From: Streptococcus tangpeifui
Lineage (GTDB): Bacteria; Bacillota; Bacilli; Lactobacillales; Streptococcaceae
Assembly: GCF_011038795.1 (NCBI RefSeq)
Contig: NZ_JAAKDU010000001.1
Coordinates: forward strand, 186,001 to 250,000
Direction of reading: 5' to 3'
DNA length: 64,000 nt
This document shows positions 3,531 through 26,303 of this stretch, piece after piece (the first letter of the stretch is position 1; every line of letters starts with the position of its first letter). Below the pieces are notes generated by a model that saw only the letters and a program-made list of their open reading frames with translations, searched no databases and had not been told where the DNA came from. The position numbers and the translations under genes were made by a program.

Positions 3531-3677
3531 AGAGCCCTAAATAAACAGTTAGTCAAGGACAAATAAGTCTGCTTTGAAGGGAAAAGTCGAGAGGTCTTGT
3601 CTGTGGTGCTAGGCTTGAAAAACCACTCAATTAAAGGTAAAATAAAGAGAACTATACTAGTTGGAAGTGGGCTTATT

Positions 3678-5033
3678 ATGAAAGCAGTTAAAGACTTTGA
3701 GAACAAGAAGGTGCTGGTTTTGGGATTGGCGCGTTCAGGCGAAGCAGCAGCGCGTCTTTTAGCAAAATTAGGAGCCATTGTAACGGTCAATGATGGCAAG
3801 CCTTTTGAAGAAAATCCTTCGGCTCAGGCTCTCTTGGAAGAAGGGATCAAGGTTATCTGTGGCCACCATCCCTTGGAACTTTTGGACGAAGATTTCGCCT
3901 ATATGATTAAAAATCCCGGAATTCGCTACGACAATCCTATGGTGGCAAAGGCTCTGGGAAAAGGTATTCCTGTCTATACTGAAGTTGAATTGGCCTATCG
4001 GATTTCTGAGAGCCCAATTATTGGGATTACTGGTTCTAATGGGAAAACGACAACAACAACCATGATTGCGAATGTCCTTAATGCAGCTGGTCAGTCGGCT
4101 CTCCTGTCTGGAAATATTGGTTTTCCAGCTTCAGAAGTGGCTATGACAGCAACTGATAAGGATACTTTGGTGATGGAGTTATCGTCCTTCCAATTGATGG
4201 GAGTTGAGAGGTTTCACCCTCACATGGCAGTTATCACCAATCTTATGCCAACTCATATTGACTACCATGGAACATTTGAAGACTATGTGGTAGCTAAGTG
4301 GCACCTGCAAGATCAGATGACGGCTGATGACTATCTGATTCTTAATTTTAATCAAGATTTGGCTAAGGAGCTGGCTTCTAAGACACAAGCAACCGTCCTG
4401 CCATTTTCAACTCAGGAAGAAGTCGATGGTGCTTATCTCAAGGATGGTTACCTCTGCTTTAAAGGTGAGCAAGTCATGGCCGCAGATACTATTGGTGTAC
4501 CTGGCAGTCACAATATTGAAAATGCCTTGGCAGCTATTGCGGTTGCTAAGTTATCAGGTGTAGATAATGCTGTCATCGCTCAAACTTTGTCCAGTTTCAG
4601 TGGAGTCAAGCATCGTCTGCAATTTTTGGGACAGGTAAAGGGCGTTTCCTTCTACAATGATTCTAAGTCAACCAATATTCTTGCTACTCAAAAAGCTTTG
4701 TCTGGCTTTGATAATAACAAGGTCATCTTGATTGCCGGTGGTTTGGATCGCGGAAATGAATTTGATGAGCTAATACCAGATATTGTCGGCTTGAAAAAAA
4801 TGATTATCATCGGTCAATCTGCCCCTCGTGTCAAGCGAGCTGCAGATAAAGCGGGCGTTCCTTATTTGGATGCTGAGGATGTCAAAGATGCTGCAAGCAT
4901 TGCCTTTAAAGAAGCGGCTCCTGATGATGTGATTCTCCTGAGCCCAGCCAATGCTTCTTGGGATATGTATAAGAGTTTTGAGGTGCGTGGAGATGACTTT
5001 ATCGCTGCCTTTGAAAGCCTAAAGGGAGAGTGA
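3678..5033 (+). CDS. murD: UDP-N-acetylmuramoyl-L-alanine:D-glutamate ligase
   Basis: Cytoplasmic Mur ligase that adds D-glutamate to UDP-MurNAc-L-Ala in peptidoglycan precursor synthesis. The N-terminal Rossmann-like domain starts [19 protein letters not shown]; the ATP P-loop is [12 protein letters not shown] near residue 115; C-terminal YNDSKSTN and LIAGGLDRG are typical of MurD. ATG 3678 gives 451 residues, the usual size; the frame stays open back to 3597 but that extension has no family counterpart. A possible -10 TATACT is at 3653-3658. First gene of murD-murG-divIB; only 2 nt separate its stop from the murG ATG. Confidence 0.97.
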
Positions 5034-5035
5034 GC

Positions 5036-6118
5036 ATGGCTAAAAAAATCGTCTTTACCGGTGGTGGAACTGTCGGCCATGTTACTCTCAATTTGATTCT
5101 GATTCCCAAATTTTTGAAAGATGGCTGGGAAGTTCACTATATTGGTGATAAGCATGGCATCGAACACCAACAATTGCTCCAGTCGGACCTAGATGTTAAA
5201 TTTCATAGTATTGCGACAGGGAAATTACGGCGTTACTTTTCTTTTCAGAACCTGTTAGATCTCTTCAAGGTTGGTTGGGGTGTCCTGCAGTCTTTGGCTA
5301 TCATTGCCAGAATTAGGCCGCAAGCATTGTTTTCTAAGGGAGGTTTTGTCTCGGTTCCGCCTGTTGTAGCCGCTAAACTTTTGCGCGTTCCTGTCTTCGT
5401 CCATGAATCAGACCTGTCTATGGGGCTGGCTAATCGGATTGCCTACAAGTTTGCGACCAAGATGTTCACTACCTTTGAGCAAGGGCAGGGCTTGAGCAAG
5501 GCTCAGCACGTAGGAGCTATTACTAAGGTGAATCAGACCGACCAAACTACTCCTGATTCTGAGCAAATTAAGAAAATTAAAGCAGCCTTTGATTCCAATC
5601 TGAAAACTCTCCTCTTTATTGGTGGGTCTGCTGGGGCCAAGGTCTTTAACGATTTCATCACCAACAATCCTGACTTGACTGAGTCTTACAATGTCATCAA
5701 TATTTCCGGTGATAAGAGCCTAAATGGTTTGCAGTCTCACCTCTATCGGGTTGATTATGTGACTGATCTCTACCAACCTTTGATGGATTTGGCGGATGTT
5801 GTAGTGACAAGAGGAGGCTCAAATACGATTTTTGAGCTTCTGGCTATGCAAAAACTCCATATCATTGTCCCTCTTGGTAAGGAGGCCAGTCGGGGAGATC
5901 AGTTAGAAAACGCAGCCTACTTTGAAAAAAAGGGCTATTCAACTCAGCTGCTAGAGCCTGACTTGACATTAAAAAATCTTGAAGCAAAGCTAAAGCAACT
6001 TTTATCCGCTAAAAAAAGCTATCTATCTGCTATGGCAGATACGACAGAACTTAAATCGCCAGAAGAGTTTTATCAGCTATTAAGCATGGCTATCTCTCAA
6101 GGATCATCGAAAAGCTAG
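5036..6118 (+). CDS. murG: UDP-GlcNAc:lipid I N-acetylglucosaminyltransferase
   Basis: Membrane-associated GT-B glycosyltransferase that converts lipid I to lipid II on the inner face of the membrane. The N-terminal glycine-rich loop is [10 protein letters not shown]; the UDP-GlcNAc site is seen in [12 protein letters not shown] and the preceding D-L-Y-Q-P-L-M stretch. 360 residues. ATG 5036 is preceded by GGGAGAG within the murD end; a GTG at 5030 overlapping the murD stop is possible but less well placed. Translational coupling with murD is likely. Confidence 0.96.
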
Positions 6119-6151
6119 CAGTTGTTTGTTTTTGTCGAAAAGGGGGAAATC

Positions 6152-7315
6152 TTGGCTAAAAAATCAAAAGATGAAAAAAATCAAAAGCAAGAGCAAGCTC
6201 CTCTGACTGAGTGGCAAAAACGCAATCTTGACTTTTTGAAACAGAAGGAAGAAAAGAAGAAGGAGCAAGAAAAGCTCAAGAAGGAGTTGGCCGATAAGAA
6301 TCGAGCTCGTTTCACAGGCCAATCTTCGTTTTCTAAAGAAGATAATGAAAGCAATGGCAAGGGAAAAAAGCAGAAGTCTCAGGCTGGTTCTAAGAAAAAG
6401 TCTAAACCTGCTAAAAAGGCTTCAGTAAAGCCTTTGCCTAAAAAGCCCAAGCCTAAGTCAACTAAGTTCAAACGACGTCTGACCAGTGTACTTGTCCCTG
6501 CATTTTTAGGGCTTCTCTTGGCACTCTATATGATGACTCCGCTTAGCAAGATTAAACAGGTAACGGTTGAAGGGGTTAATCAAACCGATAGTCAGTCGGT
6601 CTTGAAGGCTTCTGGTTTAAAGGATAGCGACTATACCTTAGCTACTATCTTTAATCGTTCTCGGTTAGCCCAGTCGATTGCTAAAAATGATGTTTGGGTC
6701 AAATCTGCCACGGTTGATTATCAATTTCCCTTTACTTTCTCGATTAAGGTCAAGGAATACAGTATCGTTGCCTATGCTCAGACAGATCAGGGGTATGTCC
6801 CAATCCTAGAGAGTGGGACTCGTCTCAACAGTGTTGAAGCAACGGCTTTGCCTGATGCGTTTACGACTATAAATCTTGAAAATGGTAAGTACTTGTCCAG
6901 TTTGATTAGAAAACTGACCAAGATGGATAAATCTTTGATTTCTGAAATTAAGGTCATTACCTTGGCAGATTCTAAGACAACACCTGATCTCCTCAATTTG
7001 GAAATGCAGGATGGAAATACAGTGCGCGTGCCTCTGTCTCAAATTGATAAAAAGCTTCCTTACTATGATAAAATTAAGGATAGCTTGAAGGACAACCATA
7101 TTATTGATATGGAGGTTGGTATCTTTGCGACCAATAATGAAGGCGAACAAGAAGATACTGGAAATTCTGATGGCGACAATCCTGATCAAGCTCCAGAAGA
7201 ATCGCAGTCAGATGATTCGGGCGATCAAAACCCAGATCAGAATGCAACGGAATCTTCTTCAGAGACCGATGGCTCTGAGCAAGCTAACAATGATCAAACA
7301 GCAAATCCTCAGTGA
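6152..7315 (+). CDS. divIB: Cell division protein DivIB/FtsQ
   Basis: Bitopic divisome protein that acts with FtsL and DivIC at the septum. The cytoplasmic head (about 110 residues) is very rich in Lys/Glu, a membrane segment is at about 112-129, then an extracellular POTRA domain (ISKIKQVTVEG-type entry) and the beta domain, ending in an acidic Gln/Asp/Ser-rich tail. TTG 6152 is chosen because AAGGGGGAAATC stands directly upstream and the product begins LAKKSK; an upstream TTG at 6122 has no ribosome site. 387 residues. Lies 33 nt behind murG. In most streptococci ftsA-ftsZ follow; here a terminator does. Confidence 0.93.
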   Translation: MAKKSKDEKNQKQEQAPLTEWQKRNLDFLKQKEEKKKEQEKLKKELADKNRARFTGQSSFSKEDNESNGKGKKQKSQAGSKKKSKPAKKASVKPLPKKPKPKSTKFKRRLTSVLVPAFLGLLLALYMMTPLSKIKQVTVEGVNQTDSQSVLKASGLKDSDYTLATIFNRSRLAQSIAKNDVWVKSATVDYQFPFTFSIKVKEYSIVAYAQTDQGYVPILESGTRLNSVEATALPDAFTTINLENGKYLSSLIRKLTKMDKSLISEIKVITLADSKTTPDLLNLEMQDGNTVRVPLSQIDKKLPYYDKIKDSLKDNHIIDMEVGIFATNNEGEQEDTGNSDGDNPDQAPEESQSDDSGDQNPDQNATESSSETDGSEQANNDQTANPQ

Positions 7316-7328
7316 GTTGCTGTTTTTT
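7296..7328 (+). terminator. Rho-independent terminator ending murD-murG-divIB
   Basis: AAACAGCAA (7296-7304) pairs perfectly with TTGCTGTTT (7317-7325), then TTT. The left arm lies inside the last codons of divIB, so the operon ends here. Confidence 0.85.
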
Positions 7329-7449
7329 ATCTCTTCTTTGGGAATTGCTGCTAATTTTTTAAAGGTATCAGTGGGATTGGCCTGCTGATGTTTTCTAGCT
7401 AGAATTGTCTTTCTTTTGAAATAAATCTTAAATTATCATTAAGATTGCT

Positions 7450-7478
7450 TTGCAAAGGTTCTAAAAACATGCTAGAAT
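7450..7478 (+). promoter_or_regulatory. Promoter upstream of the 7719 gene
   Basis: TTGCAA (7450-7455), 17-base spacer, TAGAAT (7473-7478) with an extending TGC. This implies a leader of roughly 235 nt that includes the MITE-like repeat at 7506-7612. The rest of the divIB to 7719 gap holds no open frame that I can support. Confidence 0.6.
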
Positions 7479-7505
7479 AATGATAATTGTTATTGACGGT
7501 TTAGT

Positions 7506-7612
7506 TATACTTTTTGAAAATCAAAACTATACATCGTTGACTTCTGCTTGCTGTACATCGGTACTGCCTGCGCTTCGTCGCCTTGTCTATTTTTGATTTT
7601 CTTTGAGTATTA
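7506..7612 (+). repeat. MITE-like palindromic repeat (about 107 bp)
   Basis: The left end TACTTTTTGAAAATCAAAA (7508-7526) and the right end TTTTGATTTTCTTTGAGTA are imperfect inverted repeats. Between them is GTTGACTTCTGCTTGCTG...CTTCGTCGCCTTG. The layout resembles the short 'gaaaatcaaa' palindromic repeats found many times in S. pneumoniae and relatives. No coding capacity; mobilised in trans if at all. Confidence 0.65.
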
Positions 7613-7718
7613 GTTCTAAATGATAAAAAGCTAGTAGATATTACTGATGTATCCCTATCTTGTTTGAAGAAAGTATTTAGACTAGCTCTCTAACAAAAAA
7701 ATAAGGAGATTTCCTCAT

Positions 7719-9281
7719 ATGGCAACCAAAGAAGAATGGGTAAACCTATTTGAATCCACTAAAGGTCGAAAACCAACAGCTGCTGAATATGCGCAGGCGA
7801 TGAGAAACGATTTTGATATTAGCGAGTTTGCTCCGAGACAAGCTCAACAAACACCAGTTCAAGAACCAGCTACGAGTCAAGCGGATGCTCGAGAAGACTG
7901 GATGAAATTATTTGAATCAGTTTCTGGTCGAAAACCAACAGCTGCTGAATTTATGCAGGCTAAAGCAACCGGCTTTGATAAAGCTCAAATGGCTAGTATC
8001 CTTAACCCTGCTCCTGTTAGCAGTTCAGTGGCTGAAACAACTCAAACAAGTGCTGAATCTGAGAGTTTGACTTCTGAAGCTAGTCCAGAGATAACAAATT
8101 CAGCTGGTCAAGCAGACCAACCAGTCCGAGAGGCAGCGCCTTTGGTTCAGCCAGCAGAGTCAGTTGTTCAGCAGGGGGCACCTGTCCAGCCTGTTCAGGG
8201 ACCAGCGAATCCAACTCAAGAGCCTGTTGAACCAGCAAATTCAGCCTTTAATCCAGCTGGTCAAATGCCAGACTCTGGTCTGTCTGCCTCAGCTCAACAA
8301 GTGTCAAGCCCAACATCAATTCAGACTGGTTTTCAACCGACTGCTTCAGCTATGCCGCAAGGACAGATGACAGGAGTGGCTCCGGCTAAGTCTAGCAACT
8401 TTCTGAGCCTAATTTTACCAATTATTTCCTTGACTCTGTCAGTGCTCTTTATGATTTTATCTTTCCTACTGGCAGCTCCCCTATTCTTAGGTTTATCGGT
8501 GCTTGGTTTAATCGGCGCTGCCGTCCTGATTATCCTGAATCTTAAAGGCAAGCCAGTCCTTTCGATTGTTGCGACTGGTGTTGCTCTGCTGGCTCTCATT
8601 GTTACTAGTGTTGCCACTTTTGCTTCTGTGTCGCATAAAACTACAGACACTAGTTCAGCTTCAATCAGTAAAAAAGATGGTAAGGTCAAAGATGACAGTA
8701 CAGATGTCAATGACTATATTGATAAAGATTATAAATTTGAATGGAAGCAGGATGACTTCAAGGACTTGGAGGCCAAATCAGACTCGGTTTCTGATGTTAT
8801 TGAGAAACATGGTAAGGCTTCTGACGCACAAATTTCGGGTGATCGTCTGACTTTGACTTATAAGGACAGCAAAGCTGGAAGCAACAATAGTGTCACGGTG
8901 ATTTTTGAAAAGCAATACAATGGCAAGTTCGTTCTTTCAAGCGGAAATGCGAATTTTAATGCTGATGATATTGATTCGAGCAGGGATTATAAATCTGACT
9001 GGAAAAAAGAAGACTATGATGCATTGAAAGAAGGCGACAGTGAAACGGGTGCCGGCGGTAGCAGTTGGAATGATATTAAGAATAAGCATCCAAAAGTTTC
9101 TTCAGCCTATTATAATCTGTCTTTCTATGGTGACGAAGATATCAGCTATGGTTTGTCAGTCACTTACTCAGATTATGGTACTGATGATTCTCATTTGACC
9201 TATGTAGGTTTAACCTTTAAATCAGACGATGGCGGAAAAACTTATAACTTGTCTTCTAAGTATAGTGACAAGGATAACTAA
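7719..9281 (+). CDS. Membrane protein with two N-terminal W...GRxP modules and a duplicated extracellular domain
   Basis: 520 residues, no named family recognised. Residues 7-23 and 61-77 are two copies of W-x3-F-E-x3-GRKP-x3-E, the module also seen once at 23170 and twice at 24522. A Pro/Gln/Ser-rich linker (about 95-225) leads to a hydrophobic block (about 227-306) with two or three membrane passes. The C-terminal half contains two related units, each opening DYK-x2-W-K-x2-D (near 340 and 427) and carrying a KHGK or KHPK step, reminiscent of small lipoprotein-type domains that monitor the envelope. Strong ribosome site AAGGAGA upstream of ATG 7719. Monocistronic by layout. Membrane placement is clear; function is unknown. 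Confidence 0.85.
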   Translation: MATKEEWVNLFESTKGRKPTAAEYAQAMRNDFDISEFAPRQAQQTPVQEPATSQADAREDWMKLFESVSGRKPTAAEFMQAKATGFDKAQMASILNPAPVSSSVAETTQTSAESESLTSEASPEITNSAGQADQPVREAAPLVQPAESVVQQGAPVQPVQGPANPTQEPVEPANSAFNPAGQMPDSGLSASAQQVSSPTSIQTGFQPTASAMPQGQMTGVAPAKSSNFLSLILPIISLTLSVLFMILSFLLAAPLFLGLSVLGLIGAAVLIILNLKGKPVLSIVATGVALLALIVTSVATFASVSHKTTDTSSASISKKDGKVKDDSTDVNDYIDKDYKFEWKQDDFKDLEAKSDSVSDVIEKHGKASDAQISGDRLTLTYKDSKAGSNNSVTVIFEKQYNGKFVLSSGNANFNADDIDSSRDYKSDWKKEDYDALKEGDSETGAGGSSWNDIKNKHPKVSSAYYNLSFYGDEDISYGLSVTYSDYGTDDSHLTYVGLTFKSDDGGKTYNLSSKYSDKDN

Positions 9282-13022: not shown

Positions 13023-13051
13023 TTGTTTGATAGCGCAAAATGTGCTAAAAT
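13023..13051 (+). promoter_or_regulatory. Promoter of the glucan-binding esterase gene
   Basis: TTGTTT (13023-13028), 17-base spacer, TAAAAT (13046-13051) preceded by TGTGC. The start near 13058 gives a leader of about 22 nt that ends in AAGGAGG (13064-13070). Confidence 0.7.
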
Positions 13052-13079
13052 GACAGGGATTACAAGGAGGAATGATATT

Positions 13080-15521
13080 ATGTCATTGGAAAAACATCAA
13101 CGTTACAGTTTTCGTAAATTGAAATTTGGCTTAGCATCTGTTGCGGTTGCTGCCTTTTTATCAGGAACAGCTGGTTTAGCTCAAGCTGATGAAACAAGTG
13201 CTGATGAGCAAGAGAATAATAACCAAATTGCTGCACAAACAGGTAACGATCAGGACAATCAAGTTCAAACTGATACTGAGCAGAGTAGTTCTAGCCAGAC
13301 TGCTGTTGCTCCAACTGAAGTCAATAATCAGCAAGAAGCCGTCACGCCGACAAGTACCAGCGAAACTAGTATGGTTGCTCAGCCTGCTACCGAATCAGTA
13401 GCGAATCCCGATGCGGCAACGACGACGTTAAATCTAGACCAAGGGAGTGAGACTGCCAGCTTTGAGGCTAATCTAGCTGATTCTAAGATTGCGACCGGGA
13501 CTGGTGCTCAGGCTGATAAGCTTGATGCCGCCTTGGCTAAAAGAGCCGTCACAGCTGATGTTAAATACAAGAATACTTTTGTTGATGATGGACAGGGCAA
13601 CTGGTACTATCTTGATAATAATGGTAACAATGTGACTGGCCGTCAAGATATCAACGGTCAAAGGCTCTATTTCGCTCAAGATGGGAAGCAGGTCAAAGGT
13701 CAAGAGGCTACCATTGATGGTAAGGTCTATTATTTTGATAGGGATAGTGGTGAGCTGTGGATCAACCGTTTCCGCCAAGCAGATGATCAACAAGGTTGGT
13801 TCTATTATGGTTCTGACGGTGCTCGTGTTGTTGGGAGCCAAGAAATCGGTGGCCAAAAGCTGTACTTTGATCCAACTACTGGCAAGCAGGCTAAGGGACG
13901 TTTGGTCACTGATAGTGATGGGAAGATTCGCTATTATGATCAAGATAGTGGCAATCTTTGGACCGACCGTTTTGCTCAAATTGATGGCAGATGGTATTAT
14001 TTTGGTTCTGACGGAGCTGCCGCCACAGGTACTCAAACGATTAATGGACAAGATCTCTATTTCAATGCTGATGGTAGCCAAGTTAAAGGCGGTCTCGTTC
14101 AAGTTGATGGCAAAACTCATTATTATGATGAAAATTCAGGCCAAATGCTTAGAAATACTAGTCTGTTGATTGATGGTGTAACCTATAGATTTGATAATAA
14201 TGGCGATGGTCAGGCTCAAGATAAGATTCAGGTTGTCAAAACCAGTATTGTGGTTGATAGCTATGAATTTGGCCCTGCTGTTTCTAAAATCATCTTACAA
14301 TTTGATCATAAGGTAACCCCATCGGTTATTCATAATGGTGCCAGTGTTATGACCGCAGGTGTAGCTCGTCAAGTCTTGAATTCTTATGTTTCAGATGCGA
14401 CTGGTCATGTGGTCTATTTCGACAGCAGCAATTATGTAACACTGGAATTGAACATCCCTTATGATAGTAATGATACCAGCAAGAATGCTTCTCCATTTAA
14501 TTTTGATATGGCTACTTTTTCTAACCAGTGGGCTAGTGCCTATAATGTTAAAGTAGATGGCTTGTCTGTTCAATATGATGGTTCTGTTTATCATCAAAAT
14601 CTTACTTCGGAACAAAATGCTATTGCTAACCGAGTGATTCCTGAGACAGAACGTTTCTCAGAACGTGCTACTTATGGCGATTTTCATTACGCAGCCTATA
14701 CGCCGGAAAACGCCAAGGCTGGTGAAAAGAATCCATTGATTATCTGGCTGCATGGTATTGGTGAAGTTGGTACAGATGTTGATATTCCGATTCTTGCCAG
14801 CAACGCTGTCAACTTGACAGAAGATCCGATTCAAAGTCATTTCACTTCAACTGGCAAGGGTACCCAAAAAGGCGCTTATGTCATGGTATTGCAGAGCCCA
14901 ACGTCTTGGGAAAAAGCAGATAAGACTCAAGTCATGGCCGCTATTCGCTCTTATGTTGCTGCCCATCCAGATATTGATAGTAATCGTATTTATTTGGCCG
15001 GTGCCTCAAATGGCGGCGGAATGACTTGGGCTTTAGCTGCTGCTTATCCTAATTACTTTGCTGCTCTAGTTCCGATTTCTGCACCGTATGATGTTATTTT
15101 GACTAACAATAATAATAATATTAAGGTGGATGTGCAAGCTGCTTTAAGGAATCAACCAATGTGGCTGATTTCTTCTAAGGCAGATGCAACTCTTGATGTT
15201 GACAATCATGTCTTGCCGTTCTATAAAGATATGTTGCAGGCTGGCGGGCAAAATAAATGGCTGTCTTACTTTGAAACCAATGTTGGTGAGTTTGCTAATC
15301 ATCCAACTTACAATGGACACTGGTCATGGGTTTACTTTATGAACGACCAAGTTACCGGTGTGCAAAATGCTACTAATGCTGAAAATTGGGCAGGTTTGAC
15401 CGGTATGGTACCAACCAATGCTACCCGCGGCGGTGATGCTCAGGCGGTCTATAAGGGCAAAAAATATGCTAATATCTTTGACTGGATGAATGCTCAAAAT
15501 AAAAAGAATCGTAAAGCCTAA
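13080..15521 (+). CDS. Secreted glucan-binding protein with C-terminal esterase domain
   Basis: 813 residues. The start is a YSIRK-like signal peptide (YSFRKLKFGLASVAVAAFL, residues about 9-27), cleaved near AQADE. Residues about 38-150 are Gln/Thr/Ser-rich. Residues about 161-375 are cell-wall/glucan-binding repeats of the glucosyltransferase type (NWYYLDNNG, RLYFAQDGKQVKG and similar). Then comes an Ig-like module typical of esterases, and an alpha/beta-hydrolase domain with GASNGG (Ser643), Asp702 in SKADAT and His747 in NGHWSW as likely triad. No LPXTG motif, so it is probably held by glucan. ATG 13080 is chosen for its AAGGAGG; the frame is open to 13023 but through the promoter. Substrate unknown; an acyl or feruloyl ester on a polymer is plausible. 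Confidence 0.9.
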   Translation: MSLEKHQRYSFRKLKFGLASVAVAAFLSGTAGLAQADETSADEQENNNQIAAQTGNDQDNQVQTDTEQSSSSQTAVAPTEVNNQQEAVTPTSTSETSMVAQPATESVANPDAATTTLNLDQGSETASFEANLADSKIATGTGAQADKLDAALAKRAVTADVKYKNTFVDDGQGNWYYLDNNGNNVTGRQDINGQRLYFAQDGKQVKGQEATIDGKVYYFDRDSGELWINRFRQADDQQGWFYYGSDGARVVGSQEIGGQKLYFDPTTGKQAKGRLVTDSDGKIRYYDQDSGNLWTDRFAQIDGRWYYFGSDGAAATGTQTINGQDLYFNADGSQVKGGLVQVDGKTHYYDENSGQMLRNTSLLIDGVTYRFDNNGDGQAQDKIQVVKTSIVVDSYEFGPAVSKIILQFDHKVTPSVIHNGASVMTAGVARQVLNSYVSDATGHVVYFDSSNYVTLELNIPYDSNDTSKNASPFNFDMATFSNQWASAYNVKVDGLSVQYDGSVYHQNLTSEQNAIANRVIPETERFSERATYGDFHYAAYTPENAKAGEKNPLIIWLHGIGEVGTDVDIPILASNAVNLTEDPIQSHFTSTGKGTQKGAYVMVLQSPTSWEKADKTQVMAAIRSYVAAHPDIDSNRIYLAGASNGGGMTWALAAAYPNYFAALVPISAPYDVILTNNNNNIKVDVQAALRNQPMWLISSKADATLDVDNHVLPFYKDMLQAGGQNKWLSYFETNVGEFANHPTYNGHWSWVYFMNDQVTGVQNATNAENWAGLTGMVPTNATRGGDAQAVYKGKKYANIFDWMNAQNKKNRKA

Positions 15522-23169: not shown

Positions 23170-24498
23170 ATGAACAAACAGGATTGGATTGAATATTTTG
23201 AGGCCATCAATGGTCGAACACCCTCAGAGGCTGAGGTGGCCCAAGGACTTGCGGCGGGAGAATTTGTGGCAGAAGATGTGGCAGCAGCTCCAGAACAAGT
23301 CCAACCAGTAGCGCCGCAGGAACCAGTTGCTCCGCAGCCAGCACAAGCAGCAAACTCAGCAGAGGCCCAAGCTGAACAAATGGCGCAAACTCAAGCTCCC
23401 ATTCAGCCACAAGCAGGACAGGAGTCTGTTCAAGCAGCGGCTCCGCAAGATTTTGCAGAGGCTTCTGGTCAAGCACAAGCAATGCCGAGCTTTCAAAATC
23501 CTCAGGCCGATCAAGCCAGTCAATTTGCTCAGGTCCAACAAGGTTCAGTTCAAGCTGGTCAACCAATGTCAGGTCAATTTACTCAGCCAGGCCAAGTAGC
23601 ACAACCTCAGCAACAAGTCTATTATCAACAAGGTCCAGACGGTCAAGTTCAAGCGGTTATGGCTCCAGCACCTAAGCAACCCAATCCACAAGTAGAAGCC
23701 TTTAAGAAAGGATTTAAGGATTACTTTGCCTGGTTCTTGAAAGGCTTCAAGAATCCTCAAGCTAAGGAAGAAGAGGCTCATCCTGTTTTTGGTTTGGTAA
23801 CGATTGGTTTGGCTTCTTGGTTCATTTCATGGGGCTTAGTCAACTTCTTCCATAGATTATTGATGATGTTCCCTAATGCTACAGCTGATGGTGAAAGCTT
23901 TAAGGAAGCAGATCATGAAGCCTATAAGGAAATTGTAAATAGTATTTCTAGTCATTTTGGTTTTCTTAAGACTTTCGCATTCATCTTTATCTTCTTTGTC
24001 TTTTATGTCCTTGTTATGGGGGCACCTGCTATTTTTGATAAAGATAAGACCAAGACCTTCTTCAAAAAATTTGGTCAATATTTCTCTTATAGTCCAATTG
24101 TTTTGGTCTTGAATATCCTAGCGTTCTTCAGTAGTTTTATTGTTACGAACCAGTTAGATGTTGATACCTCAGCAATGGATGCCTTTGATACTTCTGATTC
24201 TTTATTTGGATCTTTTGGAATGTTTGCCAAGCTGGAACAAGCATTGCCAGCTCTTAAAACGATTACTGTTGGCGGAGGATTTGTGACCTTCTTTGTTATT
24301 CTTGGTCTTCTTTTCATCTTTGTGGCTCTGCTCAAAAACATTAATCTTTCTCTTAAGAAAGTTAACAATTTTTACATGTCAGTGCTAGTTGGTTTGGTGT
24401 TTGCCTTGGTTCTGTTCATCGTTTACAAGATTTCAAGTTCGATGATTATTGGTGGTTTAAGGGATATTCTCACAGAGTTATCCTCTAACTTTTTCTAA
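23170..24498 (+). CDS. Multispanning Yip1-like membrane protein with one N-terminal W...GRxP module
   Basis: 442 residues. Residues 6-22 carry W-x3-F-E-x3-GRTP-x3-E, the module repeated in the 7719 and 24522 proteins. Residues about 35-175 are a Gln/Ala/Pro-rich linker. The C-terminal 260 residues have about five membrane segments (around 205-225, 260-285, 315-335, 370-395 and 405-430), with a layout like the Yip1/DUF families found beside zinc-ribbon membrane proteins. AAGGAGAA before ATG 23170. First gene of a two-gene operon with 24522 (23 nt apart). Function unknown; the family likeness is my inference from pattern. Confidence 0.8.
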   Translation: MNKQDWIEYFEAINGRTPSEAEVAQGLAAGEFVAEDVAAAPEQVQPVAPQEPVAPQPAQAANSAEAQAEQMAQTQAPIQPQAGQESVQAAAPQDFAEASGQAQAMPSFQNPQADQASQFAQVQQGSVQAGQPMSGQFTQPGQVAQPQQQVYYQQGPDGQVQAVMAPAPKQPNPQVEAFKKGFKDYFAWFLKGFKNPQAKEEEAHPVFGLVTIGLASWFISWGLVNFFHRLLMMFPNATADGESFKEADHEAYKEIVNSISSHFGFLKTFAFIFIFFVFYVLVMGAPAIFDKDKTKTFFKKFGQYFSYSPIVLVLNILAFFSSFIVTNQLDVDTSAMDAFDTSDSLFGSFGMFAKLEQALPALKTITVGGGFVTFFVILGLLFIFVALLKNINLSLKKVNNFYMSVLVGLVFALVLFIVYKISSSMIIGGLRDILTELSSNFF

Positions 24499-24521: not shown

Positions 24522-26303
24522 ATGGCTACGAAAGAAAGATGGACAGAATTATTTGAAGATGTTGTCGGCCGCAAACCTACGCCTCAGGAATTTATGGCTG
24601 GGAAAAAAGCTGACTTTTCACCTAAGGAGATTCGTCGAATTGCTGGCTTGGAAAGTATTGATGGGGTTATTACAAGCGCCCAAGCAGTTTCTCAGGACAG
24701 TGATGTTACACAGAAAGCGTTTGTCTCCGATTTAGCCGATCAAGATTTTTCGAAAACAACTGCAGGTCAGGAGAAAGAGCCCAGTCAGTCTGTCGAAAGA
24801 ATGTCCGAAACAGGGATTCATCAGTCCAATTTATCTGAGCAGGATGATCTTGATAAATTGCAAAAAGATGCTTGGATTTCAGCCTTTCAGAAATATGTTG
24901 GCCGTCAGCCTCGGCCAGAAGAATTTTTAATCGGTAAGGCAGCAGGGTTTGATCTGACGAGTGTCAATCAGTTTTTAAATTCTAGTCCCAAGCCTGTTAA
25001 ACCACCGATGGCGACTTGGAAAAAGTTTTTAATCGCTTTCGCCACCCTGGCCGTTCTAGCCCTAATCAGTATGATTGTTTACGGCAGTCATTATTATTCG
25101 CGTGACGCTGTGGCAAACCGCTATTTGGCTGTAGCTGGTAAAAATTTTAAACAGCAACTAACCTATGAAGTTTGGGCTGATAATAAAAAGGCTATCAAGG
25201 ATTCGGACTTAAAATACACGAATCCCTCTAAAGTCTTCTCGAATACCAGTAAGTCAGATCTGATGAAGGGCTCCAATATGGTACAAGTGGGGCGTGAGTA
25301 TCTCCTATTTCCTAAATGGAAAGTGGCTATTCAGCCTGTTTCAGCAAAGGTTTCAACGAACACTAAGGATTTGAAAATCAGCATTAATGATGTCAACTTT
25401 TCGACTTCTGATAGCGATAGATACAGTTCAACTCTAAAGCGCCTTTATCCTGGGACTTATGATTTTGTGGCAGCGGGCAAGGTTAAGGGTCAGACTCTTG
25501 AAGTCAGTTCAGAAAAGAAACTGAAACCCGATCATTCAAGTAACTCTCTGACAATTGCTCTTAATGTCAAGTACCTTAGTTTCACTGTCAATAGTAATTT
25601 GACGGATGGTGATGTTTATGTCGGCAGCAAGAAAATTGGGAGCATGAAAAATGGTCAATATTCTGCCTCGAAATTGGCGGTTACAGACAGCGCCTCGGTC
25701 TATGTTCAGAAGAAATTTAGCGATGGTACTAGTGTTAAATCAGACACTACATCAATTGAAGATATCAGTGATGGTGACAGCTTGAATTTAGATGCGGATG
25801 GTATCTTAGAGCGTGATACAGCAGATGACCTTATGACAGCTGCCTATAGTAAAATGGAAGATTACGCTGCTGATAATACGACACCGGATGATTTAACTGA
25901 CATTTTCCAAGGTGGTACGGATAACAGCATGTATAAGGATCTCAAAGATATGATTGACACCAATACCATTAATGCTAAGGTTCGTAAGGCGGATAGTGTT
26001 ACCTTTAGCGATGTCGATGTCACTAGCGTTACCCAAACCAGTGCGAAAAGTTATACAGTGAATTTCACAGTAGTATGTGATTTCTACTATGCTTATGATT
26101 CAGACCATGAGTCATCTGGTGATATTAAGGATAAGGTGTCATGGTCTGCGAAGGTAGATTATAATGATGGCCAGTCTGCTGATTCAAGCAGTGACAACGA
26201 TGATTATGATGATGATTCTAGTTATGAGGATTACGCAGACTATATTATTACAGGTAAGAATGGTAATTCGACTAATATTAGTCGGGAAGATACTGTGAAA
26301 TAA
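24522..26303 (+). CDS. TcaA/YvbJ-like membrane protein with two N-terminal W...GRxP modules
   Basis: 593 residues. Modules sit at residues 7-23 (GRKP) and 118-134 (GRQP), joined by an acidic linker. One membrane segment at about 169-190 is followed by a large extracellular part: a domain starting near NRYLAVAGKNFKQQ, then PEGA-like beta units (PGTYDFVAAGKVKG; DVYVGSKKIGSMKNGQY), and an NTF2-like end domain with an Asp/Ser tail. S. aureus TcaA and Bacillus YvbJ have the same order after an N-terminal zinc ribbon; here the W...GRxP modules take that place. Operon partner of 23170. A role in envelope or glycopeptide-type stress is only suggested by that likeness. Ends at repeat copy C. Confidence 0.8.
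   Translation: MATKERWTELFEDVVGRKPTPQEFMAGKKADFSPKEIRRIAGLESIDGVITSAQAVSQDSDVTQKAFVSDLADQDFSKTTAGQEKEPSQSVERMSETGIHQSNLSEQDDLDKLQKDAWISAFQKYVGRQPRPEEFLIGKAAGFDLTSVNQFLNSSPKPVKPPMATWKKFLIAFATLAVLALISMIVYGSHYYSRDAVANRYLAVAGKNFKQQLTYEVWADNKKAIKDSDLKYTNPSKVFSNTSKSDLMKGSNMVQVGREYLLFPKWKVAIQPVSAKVSTNTKDLKISINDVNFSTSDSDRYSSTLKRLYPGTYDFVAAGKVKGQTLEVSSEKKLKPDHSSNSLTIALNVKYLSFTVNSNLTDGDVYVGSKKIGSMKNGQYSASKLAVTDSASVYVQKKFSDGTSVKSDTTSIEDISDGDSLNLDADGILERDTADDLMTAAYSKMEDYAADNTTPDDLTDIFQGGTDNSMYKDLKDMIDTNTINAKVRKADSVTFSDVDVTSVTQTSAKSYTVNFTVVCDFYYAYDSDHESSGDIKDKVSWSAKVDYNDGQSADSSSDNDDYDDDSSYEDYADYIITGKNGNSTNISREDTVK

What the first reader, a model, noticed from the sequence alone, without database searches (positions are those of the whole stretch)
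7719..9281. Shared W...GRxP module defines an apparently undescribed streptococcal membrane-protein family
Five copies in three proteins fit W-x3-F-[EQ]-x3-G-R-x-P-x3-E without a gap: residues 7 and 61 here, residue 6 of the 23170 protein, residues 7 and 118 of the 24522 protein. In each the module is N-terminal and cytosolic, followed by a low-complexity linker and then membrane segments. The C-terminal parts are unrelated. That is how a docking or sorting module behaves. The two loci are 14 kb apart, so it is a set, not a single duplication.
Basis: partly seen in the sequence, partly recalled or inferred. Interest (0 to 1): 0.72.

Follow-up and report, generated by a model that had tools for sequence, protein, structure and literature searches.

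The report
Zinc-free docking head of membrane proteins
In three families of streptococcal membrane proteins a small domain without zinc-binding cysteines sits at the end where relatives in other bacteria carry a zinc ribbon; it likely faces the cell interior and is predicted to dock partner proteins together.

Summary
The module is a real family: 12 copies in 10 ORFs of this genome, 112 of 284 genomes of the genus at E 0.001, four Lactococcus species. No Pfam or NCBIfam family matches it. AlphaFold2 gives three helices (pLDDT 86).

The docking idea is sharpened. The 24522 protein is TcaA-like. Outside the genus, 17 of 19 TcaA loci read carry zinc ribbons at that place. The 23170 gene encodes its partner (DUF6574 type): a profile built only from ribbon-headed partners finds it at E 4e-16. 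Over 64 TcaA rows no mixed heads were seen: ribbon with ribbon 17 of 18, module with module 22 of 24, headless without nearby partner 22 of 22. Module-headed TcaA rows are not one clade (p-AU 2e-6).

The substitution is shown; docking is inferred. Head and partner separate in only two independent comparisons (p 0.5), some other proteins carry both heads (12 of 128), and no binding partner is demonstrated.

The parts
7719..9281 (+). 520-aa protein: two modules, low-complexity linker, about three hydrophobic segments, outer part
   Evidence: ORF; hydrophobic segments; of the 119 new relatives of its C-part that were listed (best 120 of 214), 117 carry the module and 0 a ribbon
7725..7829 (+). 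module copy 1 of the 7719 protein (residues 3-37)
7887..7991 (+). module copy 2 of the 7719 protein (residues 57-91)
23170..24498 (+). 442-aa DUF6574-type multi-span partner protein, one module head then Q/A/P-rich linker
   Evidence: ORF; profile of ribbon-headed partners only, E 4.1e-16; module-headed relative L013 hits PF20214 at 3.3e-17; the window protein itself gave no Pfam hit
23173..23277 (+). module of the 23170 protein (residues 2-36)
24522..26303 (+). 593-aa TcaA-like single-span protein with two modules
   Evidence: PF22820 TcaA_3rd_4th 38.9 bits over a cut-off of 27; full-length model
24528..24632 (+). module copy 1 of the TcaA-like protein (residues 3-37); three predicted helices
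24657..24839 (+). disordered linker between the two modules (residues 46-106, pLDDT under 50)
24861..24965 (+). module copy 2 of the TcaA-like protein (residues 114-148); three predicted helices
25014..25094 (+). predicted membrane helix of the TcaA-like protein (residues 165-191)

Best explanation
The W-GRxP module is a head domain of about 40 residues that stands in the place of the N-terminal zinc ribbon in TcaA-type, DUF6574-type and DUF4767-type membrane proteins of Streptococcus, is predicted to fold as three helices, and likely docks these proteins to one another or to a shared partner on the cytosolic side. Shown here: the same C-terminal families carry either a ribbon or a module at the same place. 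In all 39 TcaA/DUF6574 neighbour pairs with both heads in frame, the two genes carry the same kind of head. The 22 TcaA rows without a head have no detected DUF6574 gene nearby. Inferred: the head is the coupling element, so partners need matching heads; the W/F core with the GRxP turn makes the contact; and the flexible linker lets a membrane-anchored head reach its partner. The module has no conserved cysteine, so docking would no longer need zinc.
For: Five exact copies. 12 copies in 10 own-genome ORFs. 112 of 284 genus genomes. W and R invariant in 70 diverse copies, F, P and E in at least 90%. Ribbon at the same place in 17 of 19 non-genus TcaA loci. The ribbon-only partner profile finds the module-headed partner in 22 module TcaA loci and the partner with split frame in L389, and nothing in 23 headless loci, one of them a short contig. 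Heads: 17 of 18 ribbon TcaA with ribbon partner, 22 of 24 module TcaA with module partner, 0 mixed, 0 of 22 headless with partner. In named loci, 47 of 60 hold the partner and 41 of 60 both partner and TcaA. Module TcaA as one clade rejected, p-AU 1.9e-6. DUF4767 also occurs with either head. Both modules of 24522 show the same three helices.
Against: No binding was tested. Head presence and partner presence separate in only 2 independent pairs, sign test p 0.5, so the table is mostly shared ancestry. Exceptions: L355 (ribbon TcaA, no partner found), L388 (module TcaA, no partner in the stretch); L118 holds two neighbouring module ORFs that match neither profile. Heads are not strict alternatives: 12 of 128 module ORFs, of other families, also carry a ribbon, and 24 of the 44 ribbon-positive genus genomes are module-positive. 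The 7719 and lipocalin-like families show no ribbon version. The group of 12 module TcaA rows sits on a long branch (2.19), where tree tests are weaker.
Confidence: 0.6

Rival explanations
1. The head is a handle for a shared cytosolic regulator, such as a kinase or protease, that recognises the whole set; the pairing of heads merely reflects co-regulation of two genes.
For: Many unrelated C-parts share one head, up to 14 copies in a genome.
Against: No regulator was identified. It does not by itself explain why the 22 headless TcaA rows have no partner nearby.
Confidence: 0.25
2. The module is a nucleic-acid-binding helix-turn-helix that tethers DNA or RNA to the membrane; the ribbon it replaces would do the same.
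For: Three predicted helices with a GRxPT turn; chance-level resemblance to sigma-70 region 3 (2 of 70 members, best E 0.076) and to the RecQ4 N-terminal region (E 0.23).
Against: No fold match at E 0.001. By eye few basic positions are kept beyond the invariant R. Matched heads in a gene pair fit protein contact better (inference).
Confidence: 0.17
3. Heads spread by recombination between paralogous N-termini and have no specific role beyond keeping the N-terminus inside; matched heads are inheritance of one operon.
For: Only 2 independent pairs separate head and partner; the separate module TcaA groups could have taken heads from paralogs in the same genome.
Against: The core residues are strictly kept across 70 diverse copies, which a mere N-terminal plug would not need (inference).
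Confidence: 0.13

Closest known systems
TcaA (Staphylococcus aureus; Pfam TcaA_3rd_4th PF22820)
   Same: Single span, folded outer domains, small N-terminal head; the 24522 protein passes the PF22820 cut-off. S. aureus TcaA is described, from an AlphaFold model, as having an intracellular zinc finger and one span (PMC10328498, passages seen).
   Different: Two modules without CxxC pairs instead of the zinc finger.
Zinc ribbon Zn_Ribbon_1 (PF13240), Zn_ribbon_3, DZR
   Same: Same place in the same protein families; tandem copies also occur.
   Different: Three predicted helices, no CxxC pairs; not a member.
DUF6574 (PF20214), Yip1-like multi-span proteins
   Same: The module-headed relative L013 and three of four ribbon-headed partners scanned (L354, L344, L336; not L353) match PF20214.
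   Different: The window protein itself gave no Pfam hit at E 1; it is linked by the ribbon-only profile.
SHOCT domain
   Same: Short, helical end domain on many unrelated bacterial proteins (PMC3581485, abstract and passages seen).
   Different: No SHOCT match in 70 modules scanned; SHOCT is predominantly C-terminal.
YvbJ of Enterococcus faecalis
   Same: Described as an uncharacterised membrane protein with an N-terminal Zn ribbon (PMC13377840, passages seen).
   Different: Ribbon head; its sequence was not compared here.

Membership tests
TcaA family | TcaA_3rd_4th outer domain | tested here: met
   24522 protein, 38.9 bits over a cut-off of 27
TcaA family | N-terminal zinc ribbon | tested here: not met
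   No CxxC pair; two modules instead. Hence 'TcaA-like', not TcaA proper
TcaA family | One membrane span then folded outer domains | tested here: met
   Predicted only: helix 165-191, then strand-rich part
TcaA family | TcaA_5th NTF2-like last domain | tested here: inconclusive
   No Pfam match at E 1 in the 24522 protein; helices and long strands at that end in the model
TcaA family | Effect on wall teichoic acid and glycopeptide sensitivity | not testable with these tools
   Described for S. aureus (PMC10328498, abstract and passages)
DUF6574 family (23170 protein) | Match to PF20214 | tested here: inconclusive
   Window protein: no hit at E 1; module-headed relative L013 E 3.3e-17; ribbon-only profile hits the window protein at 4.1e-16
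Zinc ribbon (PF13240/PF12773) | Two CxxC pairs | tested here: not met
   No conserved Cys column in 70 modules; own genome has 0 matches to either family
SHOCT | Profile match | tested here: not met
   0 of 70 modules at E 1
Sigma-70 region 3 HTH | Profile match | tested here: not met
   2 of 70 at best E 0.076
UBA-like fold | Fold match | tested here: inconclusive

The most novel reading that the evidence does not exclude
A zinc-free three-helix head has repeatedly traded places with the zinc ribbon on paired envelope proteins, and both partners must carry the same kind of head: an assembly code in which unrelated folds serve as interchangeable connectors for a family of Gram-positive membrane proteins, freeing it from zinc.
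Probability: 0.4. Interest if true: 0.82.

Novelty: new variant of a known kind. Interest (0 to 1): 0.63.

Why it matters
Ribbon-headed membrane proteins such as TcaA and YvbJ occur in several Gram-positive bacteria, and what the ribbon does is not known (YvbJ: PMC13377840, passages). A natural counterpart with an unrelated, cysteine-free head suggests that zinc chemistry is not the point; position and partner are. It also ties TcaA to a DUF6574 partner gene and gives a directly testable rule: matching heads. Annotation is affected as well: a module-headed TcaA-like protein of Streptococcus dentapri with no cysteine at all is named 'zinc ribbon domain-containing protein'.

Tried and rejected

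Rows dropped or not counted: L023 (a glutamate dehydrogenase-like ORF, E 0.0048); L111 (45 aa; it is the sole module match of one of the 112 genomes, and a few others there rest on E 1e-5 to 8e-4); TcaA pieces under 420 aa (L395, one piece of L355) from tree and table; L118, whose module pair matches neither profile. Flanks were fetched for 20 of the 22 headless genus loci, for 19 of the 20 non-genus genomes with a match (one had no locus), and for part of the module loci. L350 is a 3.4-kb contig, so its lack of a partner says little. The ribbon pattern also matched stretches not counted as heads: a window antisense ORF, comFC-like and accD-like neighbours, and L390.

Literature: the searches listed no paper whose title or abstract start describes the module; DUF6574 is in 0 papers of that library. 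I read passages of PMC10328498, PMC10611510, PMC8224003, PMC13377840 and PMC3581485 only. Subscription journals are mostly missing from the library.

Full report
Observation. About 1.5e-5 would be expected by chance in the six frames. The three ORFs are open. Of the two loci, the second is a pair of genes 23 bases apart.

Extent. A profile of the five copies finds 12 copies in 10 ORFs of the whole genome. A broader profile (35 rows) finds it at E 0.001 in 112 of 284 genomes of the genus, own genome included (a few rest on weak matches), in 26 of 295 of the order, two of them in another family, and in 2 of 398 of the phylum, the own genome and one more of the genus. A pattern scan of named genomes returned 60 loci: Streptococcus (sanguinis, parasanguinis, cristatus, australis, sobrinus, suis and others) and four Lactococcus species. 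The closest Streptococcus match to the 23170 module there is S. sobrinus, 81% over residues 1-42. One false match of the first profile (L023) was dropped.

The module. In 70 diverse copies W and R never vary, and F, P and E are kept in at least 90%. Pfam gave no family for the three proteins' modules or for the 70 copies, and NCBIfam none for the three proteins. AlphaFold2 predicts helices 4-15, 21-29 and 34-40 with mean pLDDT 86. In the full 24522 model both copies show the same order of three helices, joined by a disordered linker and followed by a membrane helix and a strand-rich outer part. No solved fold matches convincingly.

What carries it. 128 distinct full-length module ORFs fall into 11 multi-member C-part clusters and 13 singletons; two of the clusters are both DUF6574-like by profile. 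C-parts named by Pfam include TcaA, DUF6574, DUF4767, PrsW and DUF805. 12 of the 128 also carry a zinc ribbon, always after the module, so the two heads can coexist in some families.

The swap. Of 30 genus TcaA loci read, 8 have modules, 22 no head and none a ribbon. Outside the genus, 17 of 19 start with one to three ribbons and two have no head. C-parts of module proteins match C-parts of ribbon proteins directly. The genes near ribbon-headed TcaA include ribbon-headed relatives of the 23170 protein. A profile built only from those ribbon-headed partners finds the window protein at 4.1e-16 and none in 23 headless loci. The same profile hits the four Lactococcus module proteins at 1e-24 to 1e-28, although their downstream module ORF did not match the TcaA profile. 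Of the 60 named loci, 52 hold two or more module ORFs, 47 hold the partner, in 41 of these with the module in the same frame, and 41 hold both partner and TcaA. DUF4767 proteins carry the module in this genome and in some others of the genus, and a ribbon in L326-L328 and L335 outside it; most DUF4767 loci first read have neither head.

Matching heads. Among 64 TcaA rows: ribbon TcaA 18, of which 17 have a ribbon partner and 1 none; module TcaA 24, of which 22 have a module partner, 1 (L389) a partner whose module lies in a separate frame, and 1 (L388) none in the stretch; headless 22, all without a partner nearby. No mixed pair was seen. The head-versus-partner table is 40, 2, 0, 22. A plain Fisher test (p 5e-15, on slightly different counts typed by hand) ignores ancestry. 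The tree allows only 2 independent comparisons, both in the expected direction, p 0.5. Two genomes hold both kinds: G065 (L363 headless and alone, L382 module with partner) and G149 (L380 module with partner, L395 headless, broken and alone). One pair, L118 in another family of the order, matches neither profile.

More than one exchange. On a tree of TcaA parts with the head cut off, starred branches force at least 3 changes of the module label, and a single module clade is rejected (p-AU 1.9e-6). Long branches are a caution. L355, a Streptococcus TcaA with a ribbon, falls in the same fully supported group as 12 module rows; its place inside that group is weakly supported (84/63).

Reading. 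What is shown is that one head stands in the place of an unrelated one and that heads agree within a gene pair. That the head docks is inferred from its small conserved core, long linker, tandem copies, use on many C-parts and co-absence of head and partner. In S. aureus TcaA affects wall teichoic acids (PMC10328498, abstract and passages); whether the streptococcal pair does so is untested. Freedom from zinc is an inference from the missing cysteines.

First-stage claim. 'Undescribed' stands within the libraries and the nine paper searches used. 'Streptococcal family' does not stand: it is a head on many families, also in Lactococcus.

Noticed in passing
L389:6385-6802; L074-L089; L084: The linker of the partner protein is repeat-rich: a 42-base tandem repeat of 10 copies in L389; in the close relatives L074-L089 the ORF ranges from 319 to 411 aa, and L389 and L084 have broken frames there. 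Possibly repeat-driven variation.
   Followed up: partly
L116:1621-4758: A 1046-aa protein with DUF805, four modules, an NADase_transloc F5/8C domain and a TcaA_5th domain.
   Followed up: partly
L209, L212, L213: PrsW-type intramembrane protease relatives with module plus zinc ribbon at the N-terminus (Pfam PrsW tested for L209 only).
   Followed up: partly
window 3597-9281: The murD-murG-divIB genes are followed by the 7719 gene; no ftsA or ftsZ was recognised in the ORF list of this window (gene names by eye).
   Followed up: no
window 13023-15521: Secreted protein with YYF-type repeats of the glucan or choline binding kind followed by an esterase-like part (by eye).
   Followed up: no
P0004 (Streptococcus dentapri): Named 'zinc ribbon domain-containing protein' by NCBI but has two modules and no cysteine.
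   Followed up: yes
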